Assembly: GCF_000003815.2 (NCBI RefSeq)
Contig: NC_049984.1
Location: 27,382,920 to 27,446,919 of the forward strand
Length of the DNA stretch: 64,000 nucleotides
Source of the DNA: Branchiostoma floridae
Lineage: Eukaryota; Chordata; Leptocardii; Amphioxiformes; Branchiostomatidae
Direction of reading: 5' to 3'
A program made the position numbers and the translations under genes. A model generated the notes under the pieces. That model saw only the letters and a list, made by a program, of their open reading frames with translations. It searched no databases and was not told the origin of the DNA. Shown here in pieces: positions 9,978 through 64,000 of the stretch (positions are counted from its first letter, which is position 1; each line of letters starts with the position of its first letter).

Positions 9978-10435
9978 CACTGGCGGGGCAGGCCCACGGC
10001 AAACTTATGAAAACTCTGCCTCAGTATGGGCCTGTTTTTGACTGGCAGGAAAGCCCTGCCAGCAGCGATGATGGAGCAGTTCTCTCTGGACCGGAATCTC
10101 AGCCGATGAACCCTTGGCTTCTCGTCAGCTGCCGGGGGAACTTTACGGATGGGAGGTCATCCTCGGTGTACCTCTCGTTCAGTGTCCAGTAGTAGAATGA
10201 CAGGTTGCTATCCATTCGCTCCCTGAATTGCCTGCAGAGACAAATAGATACAGTCAACGCCTGACTACAGGCACTTGAATGTAGAAGACAGTAATATGTA
10301 AATGATAAGTGTAATACATTGTAGTACTTTTACTAAGTCATGGGATTCGGGTAGACATGGTTTTTATTTTGACATAATCATGTCGTTGACCAATCAGTCT
10401 CTCATTCCATCATCCTGGTACCGAGTCGCTACATC
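9978..10435 (-). repeat. Inverted dispersed repeat, copy 1 (partner at 46.6-47.0 kb)
   Basis: The reverse complement matches 46555-47033 over about 450 bp with small gaps. Read on the minus strand it contains an acceptor 'ttgtctctgcag' and an exon-like frame RERMDSNLSFYYWTLNERYT, then EDDLPSVKFPRQLTRSQGF and a stop. The partner encodes the same N-terminal part. It is probably a mobile element with its last exon included. No family recognised. Confidence 0.65.
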
Positions 10436-10439
10436 ATTA

Positions 10440-11190
10440 CTGATAGCAGCTTTGACAGCTGCGAGTCTGTTGTCATTGAAACTTGGATATAAGTTGAAAG
10501 TCTACGAAAGGCCACTTCCATGGCCGGAATCATATCTAAAAGATAAAACTTACATACACATATACATTTGATGTAGCAGCCATTTAGAAAAGAACGACAA
10601 AGACACTATCAATAGAGTTTCAGTTTCTTTTATTAAATAATAATAACAACAATGTTACTACCACAGTGAACCCATTAAAGCTCTTAAACGCTTACTTAAA
10701 GAATCAACTATCCCTTAATTATCTTGTAAAAAAACTCAATATAACACTTATATATGTTAGTGTACAGCAGCTACATTAGAAAGTAAGTTTGTAGAAAGTT
10801 ATTCTATGTCTCTGTGACACTATTTTTTAGTCAATATATTGTATAAAGATAAATGCAGGTCTCTGTACAATGGAGGCACGGCATTAAGATTCATCGGTGA
10901 AGTAGAGTAATTACATCAGAACATAATGAAAAATACAGCGATACAAAAGTACACAATCAATACACCTACTTCCAGCACTTGAAAAATCAATGTACAAAAT
11001 TACACAATAAATCTACTAACATCCGACACATTTCATGTAGGTCTGAGGTCTACGAATTCTCGTTTGTTTTGTTTTTAGTATTTTTGCCTTTTTTCTTTAC
11101 ATATAAGCAGATGGGGTGTAGGGGACTTTCTGCACTCGTGGCCTTGTTTGGGAGGTTCTAGTAGCTGATTGTTTTTTCTGCGATTGGCTG
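10440..11190. other. AT-rich stretch, nothing recognised
   Basis: The frame just before it, ending near 10570, has a hydrophobic run (SLLIAALTAASLLSLKLG) but no family. Otherwise only AT-rich text. Confidence 0.3.
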
Positions 11191-21761: not shown

Positions 21762-21861
21762 NNNNNNNNNNNNNNNNNNNNNNNNNNNNNNNNNNNNNNN
21801 NNNNNNNNNNNNNNNNNNNNNNNNNNNNNNNNNNNNNNNNNNNNNNNNNNNNNNNNNNNNN
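21762..21861. other. Assembly gap (100 N) beside a C homopolymer
   Basis: 100 N followed directly by a run of about 14 C and then A's. The homopolymer probably caused the assembly break. Confidence 0.98.
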
Positions 21862-22434
21862 CCCCCCCCCCCCCCAAAAAAAAGAAGATGGCTGGAGCTT
21901 GGCCAAGGTAAGTCTTTTAAACGACTCTTTGGCAGATAAAGGCTCTGCATGAGTTTGAGCACCTGTGGAGGGAAAGCCTGTTCATCTGAACTTCACTGCT
22001 ACCATTCCCTGGCCGCGGCTCCGCCAGATGCTCGGTAGTACTAGAAATAATAATTAGTTACGTTAAGGTAATCGGTCGTTGACTACACAAACCCGAGAGT
22101 AGTAGGTTGATATCTCAATCAAAGACAGAATGAGGAAGTCTATCTCACACTGCAATTTTGCCTGCATAGTAAAAGAATTGAAGAGATAGCCATACAAGGC
22201 CTGTCCCGCCACAAGGCATCATCAATTGCATTGGGGTTAACCAGCAGATGGCCATCGACGCCTTGCAAGGGCGACAGCTAAATCGACATTTTTGCAAGAC
22301 ATTCATCACATCCCAAAACACAGTTAAGAGGGATAATAGTTATTTTCCACATTTCTTACCATGTTCTTTACATGTAAAAACATGCCTACATTGTATGTTC
22401 ACTGCATGTCTCTCTTCTTCTTCTTCAAACTCAG

Positions 22435-22567
22435 GTCAAACTTGGTTTCCTGGTGTGGGGCACACCCATCAAGACATCGATCAATTCTTCAGCCGCATTT
22501 CAAACACCCTCAAAAAGTGTAACGCCACCACACTTCCAGAACTGGAGTTTTTTAAAAATTATTTTTG
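22435..22567 (+). CDS. DUF7869-type exon
   Basis: A strong acceptor ('ctcttcttcttcttcaaactcag') opens a frame reading WFPGVGHTHQDIDQFFSRIS, then NTLKKCNATTLPELEFFKNY and a stop. VGHTH[EQ]DIDQxFSRhS followed by a helix and TLPEL is the signature block of DUF7869, a domain of presumed transposon-encoded animal and fungal proteins with RNase-H-like acidic residues. Upstream exons (the DNxxxxNKN block) were not found within 1 kb. A cluster of an 18-bp motif begins 350 bp downstream. Confidence 0.6.
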
Positions 22568-22920
22568 ATGACCTTCATTTGAGATTTGCTTTATTCTTCA
22601 AATATGATTATTCAAATTACAAACATATTACTTAAGAGGTTATTGAAGCGCGTGCAATGTGCAAACTAATGATCATAAGAACTGAGCTAACTTTCCTTCT
22701 TTCCGTCTACAGATCCCTGTTCTGGCCACTTCTACAACGGCTACTTCACAATCTAGTGTACCAAAAGGGGGTCACTAGGGGTGAAAATTCAACTCCATTT
22801 TATTCTTTTTTTGTTGTTAGCAGTTCAAAGGTACACACCTTGGGCTTACTATCCTAAAGGATCTCCGCACAACAAGCTTTTATAACTTCTGTACATGGGC
22901 TTTTATAAATGGATCACTAA

Positions 22921-24249
22921 GGGGGTACGGACGCTACAACTGTAGAATTACTGGAACTGCAGCATACTGTATATTCAACATTAGAACAGAAAATGGGTGT
23001 TTTATCCTTATCTTCTTGTATAATTAGCATTTGCTATGCTAGAAAATCAACTCAAGTTGCAGTATGACTATGTTAGGTCATTTTCTGGTCATCTGTTACT
23101 TAAGCAGCTATAATGATATGCGGGTATTTTGGCTTGAAGCAAAGATTAAATACTATAATTCTTAATCCAGGCACCATAGTAGCTAAATTTTGGTGGTTAT
23201 CTATCCTTATTGGGCTTCTACATAAAATTACAACAGATATAGTGTATAACATAACATAGAATCTTTCATATGACCATTAATGAACATTTCAATGGGGGGT
23301 ACGGACGCTACACAATTATAGTAAAGACTGGTAGTGAACAATGGAATTAGCCCACTAAACATGTCCATTTTCTAATAATCATTAACTATTTATTAATTGA
23401 AGCATCCATTAATGCTACTGCATCAGTTTAACAAAGAAAATAAGAATATGAATATGCCAGTTGAGATTCCACCCAGTTGGATCTGTACTCTACTTTTTGA
23501 TAACAGGCCTACTGATAGAAGATTTTACAGAATCTGTGATAAAGAAGTGATGGTTTACATAAAAGAATATAACACAGTGCTTCCCATGTCATCAAACCAG
23601 CAATGTATACTTGCATCTTTCTTGAATACATGCTATGTACATATTGGTTTGGACAAGAGAAACAATAGTGCAGGGGGTACGGACGCTACACAATACATAC
23701 TATGTAATACTATGTTTAATTTATGCCAAGTGTATAATGTAGATTTACCAAACTGGTGTTCTTATATCAGCTAAACTCATGGGGGAATATCAAATATAAT
23801 CTCACATCCGTCTTTGGCTGCTTTGGAATGAACCATTTATGAAGTCTGAGGGGGTGTAGCAAATGTGGATTTGTGGAGGAAATCTCAGAAAAATGCAGCT
23901 CAAATTCATTGAAAAGTCACATTTTTAGCGAAAAAAGTTAACCAATCATATCTGTAAGAACTGCAATTAATGTATTGAATCAGAATTGTAGCAGTTGGAC
24001 AGCAATTTTAACAGCATTTTGCTAAAAAGCTTCAAATGGGGGTACGGACGCTACAGGTGGGGGTACGGACGCTACAGGGGGTACGGACGCTACATTTTTA
24101 TGTTTACGGTGCTATACTAGACAGAGTTTTCAGGACAGCAATGGTTTAAAGGGTGTTCTAGTATGTGGTAATAGAGACCTCTAAACTGTCATAATCACAA
24201 GCTTGTGGGATTTACTTAGTACAGAAATTAAAGGGGGTACGGACGCTAC
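22921..24249 (+). repeat. Cluster of seven direct 18-bp motifs GGGGGTACGGACGCTACA
   Basis: Perfect copies at 22921-22938, 23295-23312, 23673-23690, 24038-24055, 24059-24076 and 24077-24094, plus a 17-base copy at 24233-24249. All are on the same strand. The first four are 374, 378 and 365 bp apart, then three are packed within 57 bp. Surrounding text is AT-rich and unrelated between copies, so the motif, not a longer repeat, is conserved. Subterminal repeats bound by a transposase are the best guess. No protein or RNA role is evident. Confidence 0.85.
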
Positions 24250-25380
24250 GGATTTTTTTCGGAAAATGACATCCTGGACTTTGCTTGTAAATAATATGTC
24301 ATAAGAGTGTGCTACTGATCTTATTCTACTTCTGACCTTATACACACACATTACCTTACTTTTACATACAAAGACAACACCAATATCACCAAACAATTAG
24401 CTGCTACAGACTACAGATATATCCAGTTAAAATAACATTGGAATCTGTCAACGTGTGGGTAAAATGGAAAAATAGTCCCTATGGAACCAAAAAATGGTCA
24501 TGTCCTTCAAAAAAAGCATAAAATCACTAGTAGTCAGATGACCGCATATCAAAAGCAAGTGGTTTCTAACTACCAACTACAATTTTTCTGTTAGATCAGA
24601 GGTTTAAGAATTAGTAAAAACTGAATGGTCCCCGATAACGCTTAAAATTGGGCATTTTTAGGTTATATTTTGGTTATATTTTCGCCAAATATTGACCGAT
24701 TTACAAAATTCTTTTTGTGACATGTTCCTTGTTGTACCAGGTTTTGGGAAATGAATTTATAAAACAGCTATAGACTGTGTATCTTTTGCTATCAACTGAT
24801 AACATGTCAGAAAAAAAATGGGTACATTAGATTGTGAAGTAGCCGCAAGTCTATGCGTCTCGTAAACACCCTGACATCTACGCCTCTGATATAATATCCC
24901 ACTACTGACCACTGAGTTTAGATCATATCTTCTACTTTGGCAAGCAATAATTCCCAAGTCGCAGACTGCTGTTTGTTGTAGACTCTTTCGTTTGTGGGTA
25001 CAAATATATCCCACACAGAACAAATGTCATTCCGCCATTTGAAAAGGGATCCATAACCCCAACTAGTCATGCATGACACTGATCGTTTCGCTACTTTCAG
25101 TCTTCTCTTCAGAAACACTGAAAGTCTTTACACCAGATGTTGTCGACAAATGTCATATCTATACGAATCTAATAGAAATCGAGGCAGTATCTGTGGATGC
25201 TCTCACATCGCGCCACTTGCCATGTGTTAAAATAACACACTGTACATCATGGAAAACTAATAACCGTCATGAAGATTGTAACCTGCACATGTAGTTTCAT
25301 GGTAAAGACGTGTAGACTTCCGATCCTGTACCGAGGTTGAAGAACCCCAGTTCTCTAGTAGTAGTAGGCCTAAGGTTGAC
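24250..25380. other. AT-rich stretch, nothing recognised
   Basis: No motif copies, genes or structural repeats seen beyond the last 18-bp motif. Confidence 0.3.
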
Positions 25381-33380: not shown

Positions 33381-33533
33381 GAGTCCGAAAAGTGGAAATT
33401 GAAAACGCATGTTACGGAGGTCCTAGTCCATGGACTGGGCATTGCCTTGGCCTTCGTGGACAATCTACGATGGCCACATGACAGCAATCTGACGATCAAC
33501 ATATTGCTGTCGACTCTGCGCAAGGTTTCCATG
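33381..33533 (+). CDS. Exon with HG...VD...PHD...LTxNxL pattern, copy 1
   Basis: Acceptor 'aatgtgcccacag', donor 'tttccatg|gtaaat', fully open. Residues THVTEVLVHGLGIALAFVDN, then LRWPHDSNLTINILLSTLRK match the frame at 52544-52720 at VT-x3-LHG, VD, PHD and LTLNhL. The two are clearly paralogous and preserved as spliced exons, probably of one mobile family. The product is unknown. The HG-x8-VD-x4-PHD spacing might be a metal or catalytic set. Confidence 0.5.
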
Positions 33534-33539
33534 GTAAAT

Positions 33540-34260
33540 CGACTTGTTTGTTTGCTTGTATTGTATACACAGTAACCATCTCGAGGTGAAACGTACCATT
33601 TTGTGGACGAAATGTACTTGGTCCAATCACACACGGATACCCTACTTTGTTGAGTGCGATGGGTTCTTTTACGTGCTCGAGGTATGGCTTTGTGTCACTA
33701 AAACACCAGTAACGTTATATAAAAGTTCACAAAGATATGTTCAGTTCAATCATGCCATGTTATGAGTGAACAAAAGTTGCATGAAACATATATTTTTTTC
33801 TAACAAACAAATATATATATATATATGGAAACAATGGAAGTAGAGATCAAGCATTAAGAAAAGAGCTGGACAACGACTTTAGAACACTCCAGCCAGAGAC
33901 TGTTCTACTTTAAAGAAAGAGGGATGTTACCTATCCAGATAATATCACCAGGCAAGGCCCACTAGCACTTATCTGGTCTTGGACCGAATCACTCTCAATC
34001 AAAGCACTGCCCTATTTTTGTATCACTACGCCACAGCACATGGAAGTAGATAGACAGAATAAATCTTAGTCCGATTATCCAGTGTTTCCTAGTCGTCAAT
34101 CGTAGTCAACAGAGCACTACAAGGAGCCAGGGAACACAACACAACAGTAACTTTATTTATTGATGATACTTTTAGAATGATACTCTCGGGCGAACATACG
34201 TCCACTATGTAATTTTGGTTTAAAATTTCAGTTTTTGTTTTTAACTGCGAAAACCAAAAA
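33540..34260. other. Stretch without genes
   Basis: Contains the (AT)n run. No coding or repeat signal otherwise. Confidence 0.3.
33811..33826. repeat. (AT)8 microsatellite
   Basis: Sixteen bases of alternating A and T. Confidence 0.95.
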
Positions 34261-46392: not shown

Positions 46393-46554
46393 GTAAAGTA
46401 ATCTGTGATATAACCTCATTTACAATAGCTTAAAGATTATCGACAGTAACTGAGTAATTCTTGTCAGAATTCTGCCTCTCATTCCAAGTGGAATGACGAC
46501 TGGGATGGACTTAAGGAATTTTACTTTGACAGAAACACCACCAAGCTAACAGGA

Positions 46555-47033
46555 ATGATCTAGTGACTCGGTACCAGAATGATGGAATGAGAGACCGTCA
46601 ACGACATGATTACATTAAATAAAAACCTTGTCTACCTGAATTCCAGGACTAAGCATGTAAAAGTACTACAATGTATTACACTTACCATTTACATATTACT
46701 GTCTTCTACATTTAAGTGCCTGTAGTTAGGCGCTGACTATATTTGTCTCTACACATTTTAGGGAGCGTTTTTTTTAGAGAGCGAATGGATAGCAACCTGC
46801 CATTGTGCTACTGGACACTGAACGAGAGGTACACCGAGGATGACCTCCCATCCTTTGATGTTCCCTGACGGTAGCTGACGAGGAACCAAGGCTTCATCGG
46901 CTGAGATTCCGGTCCAGAGAGGACAGCTCTATCATCGCTGCTGGCAGGGCTTTCCTGCCAGACAAGAACAGGCCCACACTGAGGCAGAGTTTTCATAAGT
47001 TTGCCGTGGGCCTGCCACCAGTGATAATTGCTG
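46555..47033 (+). repeat. Inverted dispersed repeat, copy 2 (partner at 10 kb)
   Basis: The plus-strand copy of the 9978-10435 element. Contains an acceptor-like 'tctctacacattttag' and a frame RERMDSNLPLCYWTLNERYT, then EDDLPSFDVP and a stop. The other copy continues further before its stop. Confidence 0.65.
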
Positions 47034-47444
47034 TTCTCACTGTCAGGAAGAGAATGAAGCACATGAGGGTGCGTATGTGCTGCACCCGAGACAGGTCATC
47101 GTACAAAAACCAAGAGTAACTAGAAAAAGGAATGATTGGATGGAGATGCCAGACACCTCGAGTCCAACTTCCATGCACTAAGAAATGAACTGTTCATGAG
47201 TGACAGTGCATAGCCTCCTAAATATTGGAAGAAAGTATACGATTTGATGTGACAGTATATTTCTCCGTAGAGAAAGCTGAAGCATACTTAGATGAAGTGT
47301 TGGCTGAAATGGGACTTACCGGTACCTCGCCCTAAATCTCAAACGCATACGATTCTAGAGAGGAGCTAGTACCTTTCCAAGAGGTGTCCGGAGATTTAAC
47401 AAGACACCAAAGAAGTTTGGGCCTGAAAGCTGACTGGGAAGAAT

Positions 47445-47916
47445 TTGCTGGTCATGACGTTGCTGAAGCTGAGGCTTGGCTTACTAAATGAAGATCTGGC
47501 TGGCAGGTTTGGAGTATCAACAGCAACCTGCTCGCGCGCACTTACAGCGACACTGAAGTTCATGGCCTCAAATATTGAAGCCCGGCGAAGAAGTAATCCG
47601 AGCCAATCTGCCAAGAAGGTTTCGAGACTCCTCCCCAGTACAAAAATGTTTGAGACATTAAGACTGTACAGAATTCTTCATAGAAACACCCAAGAATGTT
47701 GAGGCAAAGGCACAGACATGGTCCAACTACAAGCACCACCAGCCTGCCCTGGTGTCTGTCACACCTAATGGATATTTGAACTTCTTGTCTGAAGTCTGGG
47801 GTGGGAGAATGAGTGACAAGGAGCTGACCCAGAGATCTGGTTTCCTGCACATTCTATCCCGGGAAGAGGCAGTCATGGCTGATCGAGGCTTCCCCATAGC
47901 TGAAGATGTTTGCTGA
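47445..47916 (+). pseudogene. Harbinger-type DDE (DDE_Tnp_4) transposase relic
   Basis: Frame one: LVMTLLKLRLGLLNEDLAGR, then FGVSTATCSRALTATLKFMA (the helix-turn-helix-like block). Frame two, from 47662: DCTEFFIETPKNVEAKAQTW, SNYKHHQPALVSVTPNGYLN and FLSEVWGGRMSDKELTQRSG, then EEAVMADRGFPIAEDVC and a stop. DCTE, GGRxSD and MADRGF are the conserved acidic blocks of this transposase family. A slip or short deletion near 47650 separates the halves. It is otherwise well preserved. Confidence 0.75.
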
Positions 47917-52543: not shown

Positions 52544-52720
52544 GATTTTTATCGTCTGTGTAGTCTCCAGTCCCAGGTGACTGGAGCCATACTTCATGGA
52601 CAGAGGAGGGTCTTTGCTCGGGTGGACCACATGGAGTATCCACATGACACAAAGCTCACCCTCAATGTCTTAACAGATATTCTTGAGGCAGTAGATGTAA
52701 CCGAACAAACCTTACCATGA
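52544..52720 (+). CDS. Exon with HG...VD...PHD...LTxNxL pattern, copy 2
   Basis: Acceptor 'tatttcccattttag'. Open for 58 codons to a stop: SQVTGAILHGQRRVFARVDH, then MEYPHDTKLTLNVLTDILEA. Paralogous to 33381-33533, about 35-40 percent identical by eye and aligned without gaps over the motif. This copy ends at a stop where the other has a donor, so it may be the terminal form of the exon. Confidence 0.5.
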   Translation, partial: DFYRLCSLQSQVTGAILHGQRRVFARVDHMEYPHDTKLTLNVLTDILEAVDVTEQTLP

Positions 52721-52877
52721 CAAACTAGTTTTACCATTACATTGGTCGACATGTACATACATATTTAACATCCATGTGCTGTTACAAGTAAGTGCACCTT
52801 AGAAATCTAAAACAAAATCTGGGTAGCGAGTGCAAGGAGCATTTTGAAAAGGCAGACTCACTAGAAAAGACCAACAA

Positions 52878-53357
52878 TCAAGGTCAAGGTAACTGGTCGA
52901 GACTACACCTGTCCACCAACTATCAAGGTCAAGGTAACCAGTCCAGACGACAACAGTCCACCAACTATCAAGGTCAAGGTAACCAGTCCAGACGAGAACA
53001 GTCCACCAACTATCAAGGTCAAGGTAACCGGTCCAGGTGACACCTGACCACCAACTATCAAGGTCAAGGTAACTGGTCAAGACTACACCTGGCCACCAAC
53101 TATCAAGGTCAAGGTAACCGGTCCAGGTGACACCTGACCACCAACTATCAAGGTCAAGGTAACTGGTCAAGACTACACCTGGCCACCAACTATCAAGGTC
53201 AAGGTAACCGGTCCAGATGACACCTGACCACCAACTGTCAAGGTCAACGTAACTGGTCAAGACTACACCTGTCCACCACCTATCAAGGTCAAGGTAACTG
53301 GTCAAGGCTCCACCTGTCCACCACCTATCAAGGTCAAGGTAACTGGTCAAGACTACA
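52878..53357. repeat. 45-bp minisatellite, ten full units and a partial
   Basis: Units start at 52878, 52923, 52968, 53013 and every 45 bp to 53328, each beginning 'tcaaggtcaaggtaac'. From 53013 two variants ('ccggtccagrtgacacctga' and 'ctggtcaagactacacctgg') alternate, a 90-bp higher-order period, up to about 53280. Because 45 is a multiple of 3, the plus strand is open for 82 codons (units NYQGQGNQSRR) and the minus strand for 233 codons (TSYLDLDSWWSGV). Neither is supported as a gene. Confidence 0.92.
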
Positions 53358-54984: not shown

Positions 54985-55924
54985 TGCCATTGCCAATAAT
55001 TTTGCTCTGTCACCTGTTTATATTTGGATGTGTATGGAAGACAACATTGCAACAGCTCCTGTTGTTCCCATCAAGGGGCTGGTTGGTTGTCTCAGCATCC
55101 TGCTGTAGGTATAAGATGATTTCCAGACTTGATGCTGAACACTTCAAAGATCACCAGACCCATGTGGCATCTTGTACCTATGGGTTGACCTGTGAGACAG
55201 AAATGTTCATATTATTGTAAAGAATCAACAGTCGAGATTGTTCAATTAAATTAGAAAGTATCAATAAGCTTAAAACATTATACATATTTTCTCTGTTACA
55301 ACTGTGGCTGAGCATGATACATGCACATACATGCTCTCACTCTACCCGTTCTAATTCTACAGACAAGCGTGGTTACCTTTACAACATCGAGTTTAAGTTA
55401 ACGCACAGTGCATCTCAAAATCTGAGGACATTACAAATTTGGTAGCACTTTAACCCTTTAAAATCAAAATGCCACGTCAGGAACTTTCACTAATGAAGAC
55501 GGTTTACATAACCCAGTGAATACAAAGAACCCGTATGACCTGACCACACCACACCGGTCGGTAACAGAAACGGACCTTCACACACAAAAACATCACTGAA
55601 ACATCGTCCACAACCTCTGGGTAAAAATGATCGAGGTTGTGTTTTAAATACGCCAGTATCGTCGAGGATTTCAGACAAACTTTATCCTTTCCCTGACTTT
55701 TTAATTTAACGCCAGAGATTTCCCCCACAAATTTCTCCCCGACATGACCCTCACCAAAAACCAGTTTTCCTCGCCGTTAATATTTTTTTCCAGTTTCAAA
55801 TTGCAATGTACTAATTAACCACCGAAACAGCTATACTATAAGATGACAAGAAAGATTTCTGAGGCACAATGAAGTAAAATAAGAAGACAAGATTTGGTGA
55901 CACAGATGTCCGCCCTCACCTCAC
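54985..55924. other. Stretch without genes before the tandem array
   Basis: Short frames only. Sequence becomes array at 55925. Confidence 0.3.
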
Positions 55925-56403
55925 AAGGTCTCAGAACACAGTTTTTCGGGTATGGGGATTTACATGGTTAAGGACCCCAAAGTGAGGTGGTTCGACGACT
56001 CAAAACCTATAGTAGGGTGCAGATACAATTCACAAGAATTTAGTATGTTGAAGTTGAGGGTACAAGCTACAAAATATCTGAAGATGAGCATAGATTTGCC
56101 GGCTCGTTTTTCTATAACAGACACTTTGATTTCACCCCCAGCGGAGGTCATGGAACTGCAGGCGGCGAACAGGAAGTGCCGGTAACATATCAAGGCGCAA
56201 ATTCCCGCCGGCCGAAAAAGCGACGTAATCCAACTTATACAGTATGAACGCCGATGTATTCCTCTACTATTCACCACAGATTCCACCTCGCTGTCGTGCA
56301 CGGAAGAATAAATACGGCCTTTGCAAGTACCGCGATGCACTATTTTAACCCGAACTACTTTTGGGGACGGGGGTCGCGGATAATTACTGTGTTATGAGAC
56401 CTT
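55925..56403. mobile_element. TIR element (MITE-like), copy 1
   Basis: Ends are AAGGTCTCAGAACACAG and CTGTGTTATGAGACCTT, exact complements except one base. The left flank is unique sequence, so the element edge coincides with the array edge. A minus-strand frame of 126 codons (55960-56340) and a plus frame of 77 codons are open but lack any transposase signature. Superfamily unresolved, and no target-site duplication could be demonstrated. Confidence 0.7.
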
Positions 56404-56699
56404 AAGCCAACTTGACCTTGGATTTCTTTACGTTCATACAATAAAACTAGTCAAGATACAAAACCGTACCAAATTTTACAGCAGAAATCCAAATGGTTCC
56501 TGAGATATGGCCAACTTTGCACTTTGGCGCCTAGCACAGGTGTCGGCACTGTACAAGGACTATCTGAGGGGCCGCTAATTGGTCTCATTATCTCAACAAA
56601 CTTGATATTCTGGTTGACTTTTTCTGTTATAAGGAGCTTGACAGACCACATTCTACCGTTCTGAGTGATTGGGGTTGGGGGTTTGTCTTTTTTAGGGCG

Positions 56700-56800
56700 G
56701 AAAAAGGGGGGGGGGAGTCGAGCGGGCTTTAGACCGCACTAAGTCCTATACTTAAGCATAGGGAACGGTCTAGGCGGCCGTTGCCATGGTAACGGCGGGT
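56700..56800. promoter_or_regulatory. Spacer module: poly-G, 43-bp palindrome and RFX X-box
   Basis: Each spacer has 9-15 G's. Then comes a palindrome with arms TAGACCG/CGGTCTA, inner CCTAT/ATAGG and centre CTTAAG (56730-56772), then GTTGCCATGGTAAC. The last is a near-perfect palindromic RFX-family X-box at 56780-56793, repeated at 57767, 58750, 59737, 62323 and 63307 (each 14 bp). RFX factors bind this motif in animals. Regulation in this array is inference. Confidence 0.6.
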
Positions 56801-56907
56801 CAGACGGTAACGAAAATGTTACAGTTCAAGTCAGCCGAGGTCAATTACCAACATATCGGTCAAATTTAATGTGCTTGTCCGTCCCTGGGGAATTCACGCT
56901 GTGGATG

Positions 56908-57386
56908 AAGGTCTCAGAACACAGTTTTTCGGGTATGGGGATTTACATGGTTAAGGACCCCAAAGTGAGGTGGTTCGACGACTCAAAACCTATAGTAGGG
57001 TGCAGATACAATTCACAAGAATTTAGTATGTTGAAGTTGAGGGTACAAGCTACAAAATATCTGAAGATGAGCATAGATTTGCCGGCTCGTTTTTCTATAA
57101 CAGACACTTTGATTTCACCCCCAGCGGAGGTCATGGAACTGCAGGCGGCGAACAGGAAGTGCCGGTAACATATCAAGGCGCAAATTCCCGCCGGCCGAAA
57201 AAGCGACGTAATCCAACTTATACAGTATGAACGCCGATGTATTCCTCTACTATTCACCACAGATTCCACCTCGCTGTCGTGCACGGAAGAATAAATACGG
57301 CCTTTGCAAGTACCGCGATGCACTATTTTAACCCGAACTACTTTTGGGGACGGGGGTCGCGGATAATTACTGTGTTATGAGACCTT
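56908..57386. mobile_element. TIR element, copy 2
   Basis: 479 bp, same TIRs. Carries 'gatttcac', which leaves a 99-codon plus-strand frame that starts in the preceding spacer. Confidence 0.7.
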
Positions 57387-57894
57387 AAGCCAACTTGACC
57401 TTGGATTTCTTTACGTTCATACAATAAAACTAGTCAAGATACAAAACCGTACCAAATTTTACAGCAGAAATCCAAATGGTTCCTGAGATATGGCCAACTT
57501 TGCACTTTGGCGCCTAGCACAGGTGTCGGCACTGTACAAGGACTATCTGAGGGGCCGCTAATTGGTCTCATTATCTCAACAAACTTGATATTCTGGTTGA
57601 CTTTTTCTGTTATAAGGAGCTTGCCAGACCACATTCTACCGTTCTGAGTGATTGGGGTTGGGGGTTTGTCTTTTTTAGGGCGGAAAAAGGGGGGGGGGGG
57701 GGAGTCGAGCGGGCTTTAGACCGCACTAAGTCCTATACTTAAGCATAGGGAACGGTCTAGGCGGCCGTTGCCATGGTAACGGCGGGTCAGACGGTAACGA
57801 AAATGTTACAGTTCAAGTCAGCCGAGGTCAATTACCAACATATCGGTCAAATTTAATGTGCTTGTCCGTCCCTGGGGAATTCACGCTGTGGATG

Positions 57895-58373
57895 AAGGTC
57901 TCAGAACACAGTTTTTCGGGTATGGGGATTTACATGGTTAAGGACCCCAAAGTGAGGTGGTTCGACGACTCAAAACCTATAGTAGGGTGCAGATACAATT
58001 CACAAGAATTTAGTATGTTGAAGTTGAGGGTACAAGCTACAAAATATCTGAAGATGAGCATAGATTTGCCGGCTCGTTTTTCTATAACAGACACTTTGAT
58101 TTGACCCCCAGCGGAGGTCATGGAACTGCAGGCGGCGAACAGGAAGTGCCGGTAACATATCAAGGCGCAAATTCCCGCCGGCCGAAAAAGCGACGTAATC
58201 CAACTTATACAGTATGAACGCCGATGTATTCCTCTACTATTCACCACAGATTCCACCTCGCTGTCGTGCACGGAAGAATAAATACGGCCTTTGCAAGGAC
58301 CGCGATGCACTATTTTAACCCGAACTACTTTTGGGGACGGGGGTCGCGGATAATTACTGTGTTATGAGACCTT
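57895..58373. mobile_element. TIR element, copy 3
   Basis: 479 bp. Carries 'gatttgac', which shortens the plus frame to 82 codons while the minus frame stays open (Glu to Gln). One extra T-to-P change in the minus frame. Confidence 0.7.
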
Positions 58374-58877
58374 AAGCCAACTTGACCTTGGATTTCTTTA
58401 CGTTCATACAATAAAACTAGTCAAGATACAAAACCGTACCAAATTTTAGAGCAGAAATCTAAATGGTTCCTGAGATATGGCCAACTTTGCACTTTGGCGC
58501 CTAGCACAGGTGTCGGCACTGTACAAGGACTATCTGAGGGGCCGCTTATTGGTCTCATTATCTCAACAAACTTGATATTCTGGTTGACTTTTTCTGTTAT
58601 AAGGAGCTTGACAGACCACATTCTACCGTTCTGAGTGATTGGGGTTGGGGGTTTGTCTTTTTTAGGGCGGAAAAAGGGGGGGGGGAGTCGAGCGGGCTTT
58701 AGACCGCACTAAGTCCTATACTTAAGCATAGGGAACGGTCTAGGCGGCCGTTGCCATGGTAACGGCGGGTCAGACGGTAACGAAAATGTTACAGTTCAAG
58801 TCAGCCGAGGTCAATTACCAACATATCGGTCAAATTTAATGTGCTTGTCCGTCCCTGGGGAATTCACGCTGTGGATG

Positions 58878-59356
58878 AAGGTCTCAGAACACAGTTTTTC
58901 GGGTATGGGGATTTACATGGTTAAGGACCCCAAAGTGAGGTGGTTCGACGACTCAAAACCTATAGTAGGGTGCAGATACAATTCACAAGAATTTAGTATG
59001 TTGAAGTTGAGGGTACAAGCTACAAAATATCTGAAGATGAGCATAGATTTGCCGGCTCGTTTTTCTATAACAGACACTTTGATTTCACCCCCAGCGGAGG
59101 TCATGGAACTGCAGGCGGCGAACAGGAAGTGCCGGTAACATATCAAGGCGCAAATTCCCGCCGGCCGAAAAAGCGACGTAATCCAACTTATACAGTATGA
59201 ACGCCGATGTATTCCTCTACTATTCACCACAGATTCCACCTCGCTGTCGTGCACGGAAGAATAAATACGGCCTTTGCAAGTACCGCGATGCACTATTTTA
59301 ACCCGAACTACTTTTGGGGACGGGGGTCGCGGATAATTACTGTGTTATGAGACCTT
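58878..59356. mobile_element. TIR element, copy 4
   Basis: 479 bp, identical in type to copy 2, exactly 1970 bp away. Confidence 0.7.
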
Positions 59357-59864
59357 AAGCCAACTTGACCTTGGATTTCTTTACGTTCATACAATAAAAC
59401 TAGTCAAGATACAAAACCGTACCAAATTTTACAGCAGAAATCCAAATGGTTCCTGAGATATGGCCAACTTTGCACTTTGGCGCCTAGCACAGGTGTCGGC
59501 ACTGTACAAGGACTATCTGAGGGGCCGCTAATTGGTCTCATTATCTCAACAAACTTGATATTCTGGTTGACTTTTTCTGTTATAAGGAGCTTGCCAGACC
59601 ACATTCTACCGTTCTGAGTGATTGGGGTTGGGGGTTTGTCTTTTTTAGGGCGGAAAAAGGGGGGGGGGGGGGAGTCGAGCGGGCTTTAGACCGCACTAAG
59701 TCCTATACTTAAGCATAGGGAACGGTCTAGGCGGCCGTTGCCATGGTAACGGCGGGTCAGACGGTAACGAAAATGTTACAGTTCAAGTCAGCCGAGGTCA
59801 ATTACCAACATATCGGTCAAATTTAATGTGCTTGTCCGTCCCTGGGGAATTCACGCTGTGGATG

Positions 59865-60150
59865 AAGGTCTCAGAACACAGTTTTTCGGGTATGGGGATT
59901 TACATGGTTAAGGACCCCAAAGTGAGGTGGTTCGACGACTCAAAACCTATAGTAGGGTGCAGATACAATTCACAAGAATTTAGTATGTTGAAGTTGAGGG
60001 TACAAGCTACAAAATATCTGAAGATGAGCATAGATTTGCCGGCTCGTTTTTCTATAACAGACACTTTGATTTGACCCCCAGCGGAGGTCATGGAACTGCA
60101 GGCGGCGAACAGGAAGTGCCGGTAACATATCAAGGCGCAAATCCCGCCGC
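59865..60150. mobile_element. TIR element, copy 5 (truncated)
   Basis: Type of copy 3. Breaks off at 'caaatcccgccgc' before an N, with one T lost from 'aattcccgcc'. Probably an assembly join, not a biological end. Confidence 0.7.
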
Positions 60151-61466
60151 NCCTTTCTTTAACCTTTTTCTGTCTGCAAAGGTTGTCAGATAAGAGAACT
60201 CATAAAGGCTACATTACTGCACTTATTGCTCCTGGTTGAGCACAAATGAAATGTAATAACTCCACAATTCACTCCTGCCCGAGAGAGGCTACGGGCTCCT
60301 GGTAGCAATAACTGCCCTTTCATTGACACCTAAAGCGGTCCAACCTGAGAGCCTTGGATTTAGCTGCATAAGAATAATATCAGCTGGATATCATAATGAT
60401 TTCTGTGATAATTTCTGTCAAAGAAGTGTCACCTTGGATATGTGCGAGGTAGGTAAAGTCTTGCTGCAAGTTCCTAATTGTGCACAAGTGAGCCCAGAGG
60501 ACTTAGTCAATAAAATGAGCAGCAAGAGACATTTCAAGTACTTCTAGAAGACCCTATTTACCATTACACATACACTGATGTGTGTGATCTTACAAAATAC
60601 ACTTCAATTTCCTAACAACACACAAAGTTTCTAATGAAAGTCTTCAGTGAGAGACCAAATATCTTTTCCATAGATCTCTGCCAGCTTACTTCAAGCTAAT
60701 ATCATGGGCGATACTTGGCTTTTCTACATGCACATGAAAATAGCAGGTGAAGAAGAAAGACTGGCACATGTATATACATCAAGTATTCTGTCTCCCCCTC
60801 CATCTTTATGCCAAGAAGTCCCTCAAACCAATAAGTCTCTCAAACCAAGAAGTCTCTCAAATCAAAGTCCCCAAAACAAAAAAGTCTCTCAAAGTCAAAC
60901 CAGACAGAATCCAGACAGTCTGAACTTATACTGTTATAGGTCAACATGTGTTCTCAATAGCAGAGGTCCCTTTTATCTGTCCTACTTTATGGAAGACCTC
61001 TTTCGAAACTTAGAAGTTCAGGTTTCCTGAAAACTCATCAACAAAATCTTTCCAAGGTGTCTAATAAATCAGAAAGTTGTCCATAAAATTTAACATTCTG
61101 TAGATGCCCCCTATGTGTAAGTTTTAGCGGTAACAACATGAGTAATTCTTCATTCTTTAAGTATAACACTACCATGTGTAGCTTCTCGAATGGACAATAT
61201 TAATTAGCAATAGATAAATTGAGTTATCCAGAATATGATCTATGGCAGCTGAACATTTTTCAGTGCCAAGTCACCACATAAGGAAAACTCAAGGTCGGCT
61301 CTGCATGTGTACAACTTTGCTGAGCATTTAGACTGCCTGAAGGGATAGCAATTTTGATAAATGGGTTTGGTGGAAAGGAGTGAGGGAGGAGCTAAAAAGG
61401 AGCTGAGGTGCCTTGTTGTGTTTTCACTGCATGAACTGGGGAGGGGCGACAATTCTACAAGTAATG
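60151..61466. other. Unique segment between the two arrays
   Basis: Starts with a single N at 60151. A short tandem phrase 'aagtctctcaaacc' recurs about five times at 60811-60896. Frames at 60323-60547 and 60704-61030 are open but lack domains. Confidence 0.5.
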
Positions 61467-61945
61467 AAGGTCTCAGAACACAGTTTTTCGGGTATGGGGA
61501 TTTACATGGTTAAGGACCCCAAAGTGAGGTGGTTCGACGACTCAAAACCTATAGTAGGGTGCAGATACAATTCACAAGAATTTAGTATGTTGAAGTTGAG
61601 GGTACAAGCTACAAAATATCTGAAGATGAGCATAGATTTGCCGGCTCGTTTTTCTATAACAGACACTTTGATTTGACTCCCAGCGGAGGTCATGGAACTG
61701 CAGGCGGCGAACAGGAAGTGCCGGTAACATATCAAGGCGCAAATTCCCGCCGGCCGAAAAAGCGACGTAATCCAACTTATACAGCATGAACGCCGATGTA
61801 TTCCTCTACTATTCACCACAGATTCCACCTCGCTGTCGTGCACGGAAGAATAAATACGGCCTTTGCAAGTACCGCGATGCACTATTTTAACCCGAACTAC
61901 TTTTGGGGACGGGGGTCGCGGATAATTACTGTGTTATGAGACCTT
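61467..61945. mobile_element. TIR element, copy 6
   Basis: 479 bp with complete TIRs. Left flank 'caagtaatg' is unique sequence. Confidence 0.7.
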
Positions 61946-62450
61946 AAGCCAACTTGACCTTGGATTTCTTTACGTTCATACAATAAAACTAGTCAAGATA
62001 CAAAACCGTACCAAATTTTAGAGCAGAAATCCAAATGGTTCCTGAGATATGGCCAACTTTGCACTTTGGCGCCTAGCACAGGTGTCGGCACTGTACAAGG
62101 ACTATCTGAGGGGCCGCTAATTGGTCTCATCATCTCAACAAACTTGATATTCTGGTTGACTTTTTCTGTTATAAGGAGCTTGCCAGACCACATTCTACCG
62201 TTCTGAGTGATTGGGGTTGGGGGTTTGTCTTTTTTAGGGCGGAAAAGGGGGGGGGGGGAGTCGAGCGGGCTTTAGACCGCACTAAGTCCTATACTTAAGC
62301 ATAGGGAACGGTCTAGGCGGCCGTTGCCATGGTAACGGCGGGTCAGACGGTAACGAAAATGTTACAGTTCAAGTCAGTCGAGGTCAATTACCAACATATC
62401 GGTCAAATTTAATGTGCTTGTCCGTCCCTGGGGAATTCACGCTGTGGATG

Positions 62451-62929
62451 AAGGTCTCAGAACACAGTTTTTCGGGTATGGGGATTTACATGGTTAAGGA
62501 CCCCAAAGTGAGGTGGTTCGACGACTCAAAACCTATAGTAGGGTGCAGAAACAATTCACAAGAATTTAGTATGTTGAAGTTGAGGGTACAAGCTACAAAA
62601 TATCTGAAGATGAGCATAGATTTGCCGGCTCGTTTTTCTATAACAGACACTTTGATTTGACCCCCAGCGGAGGTCATGGAACTGCAGGCGGCGAACAGGA
62701 AGTGCCGGTAACATATCAAGGCGCAAATTCCCGCCGGCCGAAAAAGCGACGTAATCCAACTTATACAGCATGAACGCCGATGTATTCCTCTACTATTCAC
62801 CACAGATTCCACCTCGCTGTCGTGCACGGAAGAATAAATACGGCCTTTGCAAGTACCGCGATGCACTATTTTAACCCGAACTACTTTTGGGGACGGGGGT
62901 CGCGGATAATTACTGTGTTATGAGACCTT
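62451..62929. mobile_element. TIR element, copy 7
   Basis: 479 bp. Has 'gcagaaacaatt' where copies 1-6 have 'gcagatacaatt'. Confidence 0.7.
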
Positions 62930-63434
62930 AAGCCAACTTGACCTTGGATTTCTTTACGTTCATACAATAAAACTAGTCAAGATACAAAACCGTACCAAAT
63001 TTTAGAGCAGAAATCCAAATGGTTCCTGAGATATGGCCAACTTTGCACTTTGGCGCCTAGCACAGGTGTCGGCACTGTACAAGGACTATCTGAGGGGCCG
63101 CTAATTGGTCTCATCATCTCAACAAACTTGATATTCTGGTTGACTTTTTCTGTTATAAGGAGCTTGCCAGACCACATTCTACCGTTCTGAGTGATTGGGG
63201 TTGGGGGTTTGTCTTTTTTAGGGCGGAAAAGGGGGGGGGGGGAGTCGAGCGGGCTTTAGACCGCACTAAGTCCTATACTTAAGCATAGGGAACGGTCTAG
63301 GCGGCCGTTGCCATGGTAACGGCGGGTCAGACGGTAACGAAAATGTTACAGTTCAAGTCAGTCGAGGTCAATTACCAACATATCGGTCAAATTTAATGTG
63401 CTTGTCCGTCCCTGGGGAATTCACGCTGTGGATG

Positions 63435-63913
63435 AAGGTCTCAGAACACAGTTTTTCGGGTATGGGGATTTACATGGTTAAGGACCCCAAAGTGAGGTGG
63501 TTCGACGACTCAAAACCTATAGTAGGGTGCAGAAACAATTCACAAGAATTTAGTATGTTGAAGTTGAGGGTACAAGCTACAAAATATCTGAAGATGAGCA
63601 TAGATTTGCCGGCTCGTTTTTCTATAACAGACACTTTGATTTGACCCCCAGCGGAGGTCATGGAACTGCAGGCGGCGAACAGGAAGTGCCGGTAACATAT
63701 CAAGGCGCAAATTCCCGCCGGCCGAAAAAGCGACGTAATCCAACTTATACAGCATGAACGCCGATGTATTCCTCTACTATTCACCACAGATTCCACCTCG
63801 CTGTCGTGCACGGAAGAATAAATACGGCCTTTGCAAGTACCGCGATGCACTATTTTAACCCGAACTACTTTTGGGGACGGGGGTCGCGGATAATTACTGT
63901 GTTATGAGACCAT
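63435..63913. mobile_element. TIR element, copy 8
   Basis: Same as copy 7 up to GAGACC at 63911. The last two TIR bases and the next roughly 36 bases differ from all other copies, then the spacer resumes at 'tacaataaaactag'. Confidence 0.7.
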
Positions 63914-64000
63914 AACCTGCAATATTGCAATTTTGTAATAACTCTTTACAATAAAACTAGTCAAGATACAAAACCGTACCAAATTTTAGAGCAGAAATCC

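What the first reader, a model, noticed from the sequence alone, without database searches (positions are those of the whole stretch)
22921..24249. Seven same-strand copies of an 18-bp motif in unrelated sequence
GGGGGTACGGACGCTACA occurs six times exactly and once as 17 bases within 1.33 kb, while flanks share nothing. The first four are spaced 374, 378 and 365 bp, then three are clustered within 57 bp. I saw no further copy elsewhere in the window. A protein-binding array is the simplest reading, for example subterminal repeats of a transposon or a recombination or replication control region. It lies just downstream of a DUF7869 exon, so that protein could be the partner.
Basis: partly seen in the sequence, partly recalled or inferred. 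Interest (0 to 1): 0.75.

Follow-up and report, generated by a model that had tools for sequence, protein, structure and literature searches.

The report
Transposon carrying a conserved 18-base array
The repeated 18-base motif is a fixed internal part of a small, apparently gene-less jumping DNA element, and a sister family in the same genome carries the same array with the same two bases changed at each shared site, which suggests a partner protein that reads it.

Summary
Observation confirmed: six exact copies and one 17/18 copy, all + strand, no other match in the window. I count 24 young copies in the genome. Of 22 with both ends read, 19 have a 3-bp and 3 a 4-bp direct repeat. It is a non-autonomous DNA transposon ("A").

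The motif is conserved: 3 private non-CpG substitutions against 19.6 expected in 24 copies. Sister family "B" (29 copies) has six of the seven sites at homologous places in sequence otherwise 32-74% identical. In the one B copy read, all six have GG where A has CT; genome-wide all 100 listed of 135 B-type sites do. Best reading: docking sites for a trans-acting, family-specific DNA-binding protein, like TNPA sites of CACTA or VANC sites of VANDAL elements. Binding is inferred; no transposase or reader protein was found.

DUF7869 is not supported as partner: its exon lies outside the element; none of 23 other A or 29 B copies lies within 60 kb of a match.

The parts
22738..24845 (+). Non-autonomous DNA transposon, family A, 2108 bp
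22738..22762 (+). Left terminal inverted repeat, 25 bp
24821..24845 (-). Right terminal inverted repeat, 24 of 25 matching the left
22735..22737 (.). Target site duplication CAA, left copy
24846..24848 (.). Target site duplication CAA, right copy
22921..22938 (+). Motif copy 1
23295..23312 (+). Motif copy 2
23673..23690 (+). Motif copy 3 (no counterpart in the B copy read)
24038..24055 (+). Motif copy 4, first of the close cluster
24059..24076 (+). Motif copy 5
24077..24094 (+). Motif copy 6
24233..24250 (+). Motif copy 7 (last base G here, A in the family consensus)

Best explanation
A 2.1-kb non-autonomous cut-and-paste DNA transposon whose seven same-strand 18-bp motifs are docking sites for one sequence-specific DNA-binding protein acting in trans on all copies of the family. 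I think it most likely an accessory protein of an autonomous partner that is lost or unseen, one that helps transposition or lifts silencing. Shown: transposon anatomy, conservation of the motif, and the same two-base difference at all six array sites shared with sister family B. Inferred: that a protein binds, that the two families use different specificities, and what binding does. My split, given a binding protein: transposition accessory (TNPA-like) about 55%, anti-silencing or transcription (VANC-like) about 30%, a host factor about 15%.
For: Inverted repeats and exact ends in 15 of 15 fetched clusters; direct repeats of 3 bp in 19 and 4 bp in 3 of 22 copies; no Pfam match inside over its cut-off in the frames scanned. 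Conservation: 151 of 164 readable motif cells exact; private substitutions 8 against 22.8 expected (p 0.00025) and sites with shared substitutions 3 against 9.2 (p 0.018); non-CpG private 3 against 19.6, base-matched. Sister family: six sites at homologous places, all GG for CT, in sequence 32-74% identical per 100-bp bin; 100 of 100 listed (135 in all) B-type sites read GG, control 0; on contigs C1-C15 100 of 105 B sites exact where 46-73 would be expected at 4.5-2% assumed divergence. One orientation throughout (68 lists).
Against: No binding protein, transposase or autonomous copy found; the terminal 16 bases occur 98 times, all but one (C8:23905482, not read) at A or B copies, fragments or relatives already listed. 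Only one B copy was read base by base. Related 17-18 bp units form tandem minisatellites outside both families, so the motif class is not private to them. The deficit of private substitutions is larger than selection on active copies alone would easily give. P values treat sites as independent.
Confidence: 0.68

Rival explanations
1. A host DNA-binding protein (for example a poly-C2H2 zinc-finger repressor or activator) reads the motif; the element exploits it or is its target, and the A/B difference records a host-transposon conflict.
For: 18 bp suits about six fingers (general knowledge). Zinc-finger genes on contig C200 begin, just after a splice-acceptor-like CAG, with sequence matching the right end of B in 36 of 42 bases. 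Minisatellites with the same motif class exist genome-wide.
Against: The C200 likeness extends outside the transposon-like start in the three gene copies compared, so it marks gene duplication, not three insertions; no test of what these fingers bind; a repressor target should be lost, not kept.
Confidence: 0.12
2. No binding function: short-repeat homogenisation (gene conversion or slippage) keeps the copies alike and changed them together.
For: Minisatellites of the same motif class exist in this genome and are homogenised within arrays; three copies sit within 57 bp.
Against: Four copies are isolated by 150-380 bp of unrelated spacer; positions are kept between A and B while spacers diverge to 32-74%; conversion would have to stop at the motif edges each time.
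Confidence: 0.12
3. The motif copies are seeds or remnants of the genome-wide 17-18 bp minisatellite: the transposon picked up units, or the transposon clusters seeded the minisatellites.
For: Unit GGGGTACGGACACTACA differs from the A motif core in one base; seven chosen stretches are tandem arrays.
Against: Does not explain conserved isolated positions, conservation within families or the A/B block difference; may be true alongside binding.
Confidence: 0.05
4. The motif acts through nucleic-acid structure (hairpin).
For: The A 18-mer gives a weak predicted hairpin (-2.0 kcal/mol), and the three-copy stretch folds at -17.0 (A) and -9.3 (B) on the motif strand; no shuffle control was run.
Against: The B 18-mer gives none (0.0), so the shared B change does not preserve pairing; isolated copies have no partner.
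Confidence: 0.03

Closest known systems
CACTA (En/Spm) transposons with TNPA-type repeated motifs, e.g. soybean Tgmt* and Tgm1 (PMC2613891, passages read)
   Same: 3-bp target duplication, inverted repeats, repeated motif of similar length (17 bp), asymmetric arrangement, and two co-resident subfamilies whose motifs differ (six positions).
   Different: Ends read CGGCTAC..., not CACTA; motifs are internal and in one orientation, not direct and inverted in the subterminal regions; no transposase seen. Animal CACTA-like TRC elements in PMC1636069 (passages) have CCC ends and 2-bp duplications.
Arabidopsis VANDAL elements and VANC anti-silencing proteins (PMC5735166, outline, abstract and passages)
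   Same: Short motif in non-coding parts, same orientation, several per element, family-specific and evolving together within elements.
   Different: VANC motif is 9 bp and often in tandem repeats; binding and demethylation were shown there by experiment; plant MULEs, no relation shown.
Amphioxus minisatellites, 'mirages' (PMC3087553, passages)
   Same: Short tandem units homogenised within clusters, in what I take to be the same kind of genome.
   Different: Mirages span exon-intron borders with varied unit lengths; no likeness to the motif was tested.

Membership tests
Cut-and-paste DNA transposon, non-autonomous | Terminal inverted repeats at exact, shared ends | tested here: met
Cut-and-paste DNA transposon, non-autonomous | Target site duplications of fixed length | tested here: met
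   3 bp in 19 and 4 bp in 3 of 22 copies with both ends
Cut-and-paste DNA transposon, non-autonomous | Dispersed copies at unrelated sites | tested here: met
   24 A copies on many contigs; flanks differ
Cut-and-paste DNA transposon, non-autonomous | No own transposase | tested here: met
   No Pfam match over its cut-off in the + frames or - frames of the window copy; frame-breaking indels in copies
CACTA / EnSpm | CACTA (or known animal CCC) ends | tested here: not met
   Ends CGGCTACTTCACAAT (A) and CGGCTGTTTCACAAT (B)
CACTA / EnSpm | 2-3 bp target duplication | tested here: inconclusive
   3 bp in 19 of 22, but 4 bp in 3
CACTA / EnSpm | Related transposase in an autonomous partner | tested here: inconclusive
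   No autonomous copy with these ends found; the transposase family itself was not searched for
VANDAL/VANC-type target | Same-orientation family-specific motifs in non-coding DNA | tested here: met
VANDAL/VANC-type target | Bound by an element-encoded protein that removes methylation | not testable with these tools
   No protein found; no methylation data
DUF7869-associated element | DUF7869 gene inside or regularly beside copies | tested here: not met
   1 of 24 A and 0 of 29 B copies within 60 kb of any of 70 matches

The most novel reading that the evidence does not exclude
Two co-resident families of an animal non-autonomous DNA transposon carry the same multi-site address with a two-base 'dialect' difference at all shared sites: a fossil record of a DNA-binding specificity switch, an animal counterpart of VANC/VANDAL or TNPA/CACTA. 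The same motif class, with further triplet variants, also makes up minisatellites across the genome, so the address may be a widely used selfish code.
Probability: 0.4. Interest if true: 0.72.

Novelty: new variant of a known kind. Interest (0 to 1): 0.52.

Why it matters
Non-autonomous elements are usually read as ends plus filler. Here an internal array is kept against mutation and differs as a block between families. The two dialects, two bases apart, are a ready-made specificity control for fishing out the protein that tells the families apart. That would make testable how animal DNA transposons co-evolve with their partner or silencing proteins; the comparable cases in the papers I read are from plants.

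Tried and rejected
DUF7869 as partner: rejected. Coding use of the motif: copies fall in different frames with stops between them. Likeness of motif and inverted repeat: no better than shuffles (0.47 and 0.11). Autonomous partner: C237 (5.6 kb between ends) is a copy with a nested insert holding most of 2595 N; C6:3064000-3074430 shares only the left 136 bp, no right end in 10.4 kb, and holds a retroelement gag-like frame; C139 is a degenerate copy; C9:12961333 shares only about 64 bp; C200 holds zinc-finger genes. The wide pairs on C13 and C16 were read and are copies with inserts or N; the wide B pairs at C17:14088870 and C9:19094530 were not read. Prokaryote control: GGGGGTACGGACGSKACA gives 8 stretches with one match each in the GTDB set. 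Papers: 'DUF7869' 0, the 17-base motif 0, 'LanceleTn' 0, amphioxus+EnSpm+non-autonomous 0. Repbase was not searchable, so the family may already have an entry.

Full report
What was claimed and what is there. The seven motif copies are real and at the stated places. The array lies inside a 2108-bp element.

It is a repeat family. The exact 18-mer occurs 154 times in the 513-Mb genome, reversed control 0; the tool listed 100 places. I read about 10 kb around each of the 15 other clusters in that list: 15 of 15 are copies of the element with the same inverted repeats. A search with the inverted repeat gave 50 hits. A search with the element gave 55 pieces, which I group into 24 young copies (89-100% identical) plus older fragments and B copies (a lower bound by the tool's note). 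Of 22 copies with both ends read, 19 have a 3-bp and 3 a 4-bp direct repeat at the borders, of varied sequence. Nineteen of the 24 aligned copies differ by 0.8-1.4% from their consensus and five by 4.3-4.5%. No Pfam family over its cut-off was found inside the window copy, + frames or - frames, and copies carry frame-breaking indels. It is a non-autonomous DNA transposon; I call it A.

The motif is kept. The 24 copies used for the count all appear in the list found by their ends, so the count does not require intact motifs, although the window copy and 15 others were first met through the motif. Of 168 motif cells 4 were unreadable; 151 of the other 164 are exact. Private substitutions in the motif: 8 against 22.8 expected for random 18-mers of the same element (p 0.00025); sites with shared substitutions: 3 against 9.2 (p 0.018). 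With base composition matched and CpG left out, 3 private changes against 19.6. These figures treat sites as independent. Private changes should mostly be neutral ones made after insertion, so this deficit is itself odd: either most differences were gathered while source copies were still under selection, or something goes on protecting the motif in resident copies. I cannot tell which.

A sister family carries another dialect. One hit of the inverted-repeat search, on contig C15, is a 2128-bp element of the same design (L048), with a 4-bp direct repeat TGCT. Outside the motifs it is 32-74% identical to A in 100-bp bins. Six of A's seven sites have a counterpart at the homologous place, and all six have GG where A has CT (one of the six has four leading G instead of five); the third site has none. 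A genome search for the motif with a base other than C at that place gave 135 hits, control 0, and all 100 listed read GG. The B end sequence gave 58 hits, among them the window A copy and relatives, and the B element gave 29 B copies at 87-93% identity to L048. On contigs C1-C15 there are 21 B copies, the same 21 loci as the listed motif clusters; five sites per copy can match the searched form, and 100 of 105 do. At an assumed divergence of 2-4.5% from a common source, 73-46 would be expected; the true divergence of B copies from their consensus was not measured.

What this means. Six separate sites in diverged spacers carry the same two differences. A changed reader protein explains this; homogenisation between sites could too. 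Fixed positions, unaffected spacers and isolated sites favour the first. The invariant part (GGGGTACGGAC and ACA) and the variable part would be contacts kept and contacts changed. I therefore read the array as docking sites for a trans-acting protein. A hairpin is less likely: the A 18-mer gives a weak one, the B 18-mer none, although the three-copy stretch of both folds to some extent (-17.0 and -9.3 kcal/mol, no shuffle control).

The wider motif class. A search for GGGGTACGGAC-H-NN-ACA gave 151 hits against 8 for the reversed control. Seven small stretches that I chose among clustered hits are tandem arrays built of 17-18 bp units such as GGGGTACGGACACTACA, or of longer units containing it, with other triplets in other arrays. 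Single hits were not read. Among the 100 listed places, C2:3180968 lies in an old relative of A and C5:16814568 in a B copy; I saw no other at the listed A or B coordinates. Whether transposons seeded the minisatellites, were seeded by them, or share a reader with them is open.

What it is not. The DUF7869 exon is real but stands 190 bp outside the element. Of 70 DUF7869 exon matches (29 on contig C6), none lies within 60 kb of any other A copy or of any B copy. The motif is not translated in one frame.

The missing partner. The terminal 16 bases occur 98 times; all but one (C8:23905482, not read) fall at A or B copies or at the fragments and relatives already listed. No copy with a transposase was found. 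The superfamily stays open. A 3-bp duplication suits EnSpm or canonical Harbinger (PMC12730594, passages); a mix of 3 and 4 bp might suit Academ (recalled). By Repbase practice (PMC4455052, passages) such an element is classed by its first 11 bases and duplication length against Repbase entries, which I could not search.

Known parallels. A soybean CACTA element has a 3-bp duplication and a 17-bp motif, and motifs differ at six positions between two co-resident subfamilies (PMC2613891, passages). Arabidopsis VANDAL elements carry same-orientation motifs bound by VANC proteins, with motifs differing between families and evolving together within elements (PMC5735166, outline, abstract and passages). 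The present case works like these as far as sequence can show; it is not shown to be a member of either group.

Noticed in passing
own genome, e.g. L064-L070 (C5:376420-377200, C3:9323190-9323360, C4:23557960-23558060, C7:25707600-25707700): Minisatellite arrays of 17-18 bp units (GGGGTACGGACACTACA and triplet variants) that closely resemble the transposon motif; origin unexplained.
   Followed up: partly
L060, L061, L062 (contig C200): Zinc-finger (C2H2) genes whose first matched exon begins, after a splice-acceptor-like CAG, with sequence like the right end of family B (36 of 42; 13 of 17 beyond the 25-mer, chance about 1.5e-5 by resampling). The reading frame in L060 is split between two frames.
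   Followed up: partly
window 22434-22547, 33381-33560, 52562-52720: Three DUF7869 exon fragments in the window; 29 of 70 genome matches lie on contig C6, many at 26-28 Mb, suggesting a local expansion.
   Followed up: partly
window 22434-22740: The left inverted repeat begins 27 bp after a splice-acceptor-like site that follows the DUF7869 exon, so the insertion may have broken a DUF7869 gene or pseudogene.
   Followed up: no
own genome C6:26496435-26496623 and C6:26737212-26737400: Two right-end pieces (82% to the A right end) without the rest of the element; possibly a further family.
   Followed up: no
window 55922-64000: Nearly identical direct repeats of about 984 bp running to the window end.
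   Followed up: no
window 9987-10447 and 46545-47016: Inverted repeat pieces 83-94% complementary, about 36 kb apart.
   Followed up: no
window 47427-47699: HTH_Tnp_4 helix-turn-helix of a DDE transposase, E 3.5e-13.
   Followed up: no
window 52870-53357: 45-bp tandem repeat, about 10.8 units.
   Followed up: no
window 21762-21882: 100-base N gap followed by runs of C and A, probably an assembly artefact.
   Followed up: no
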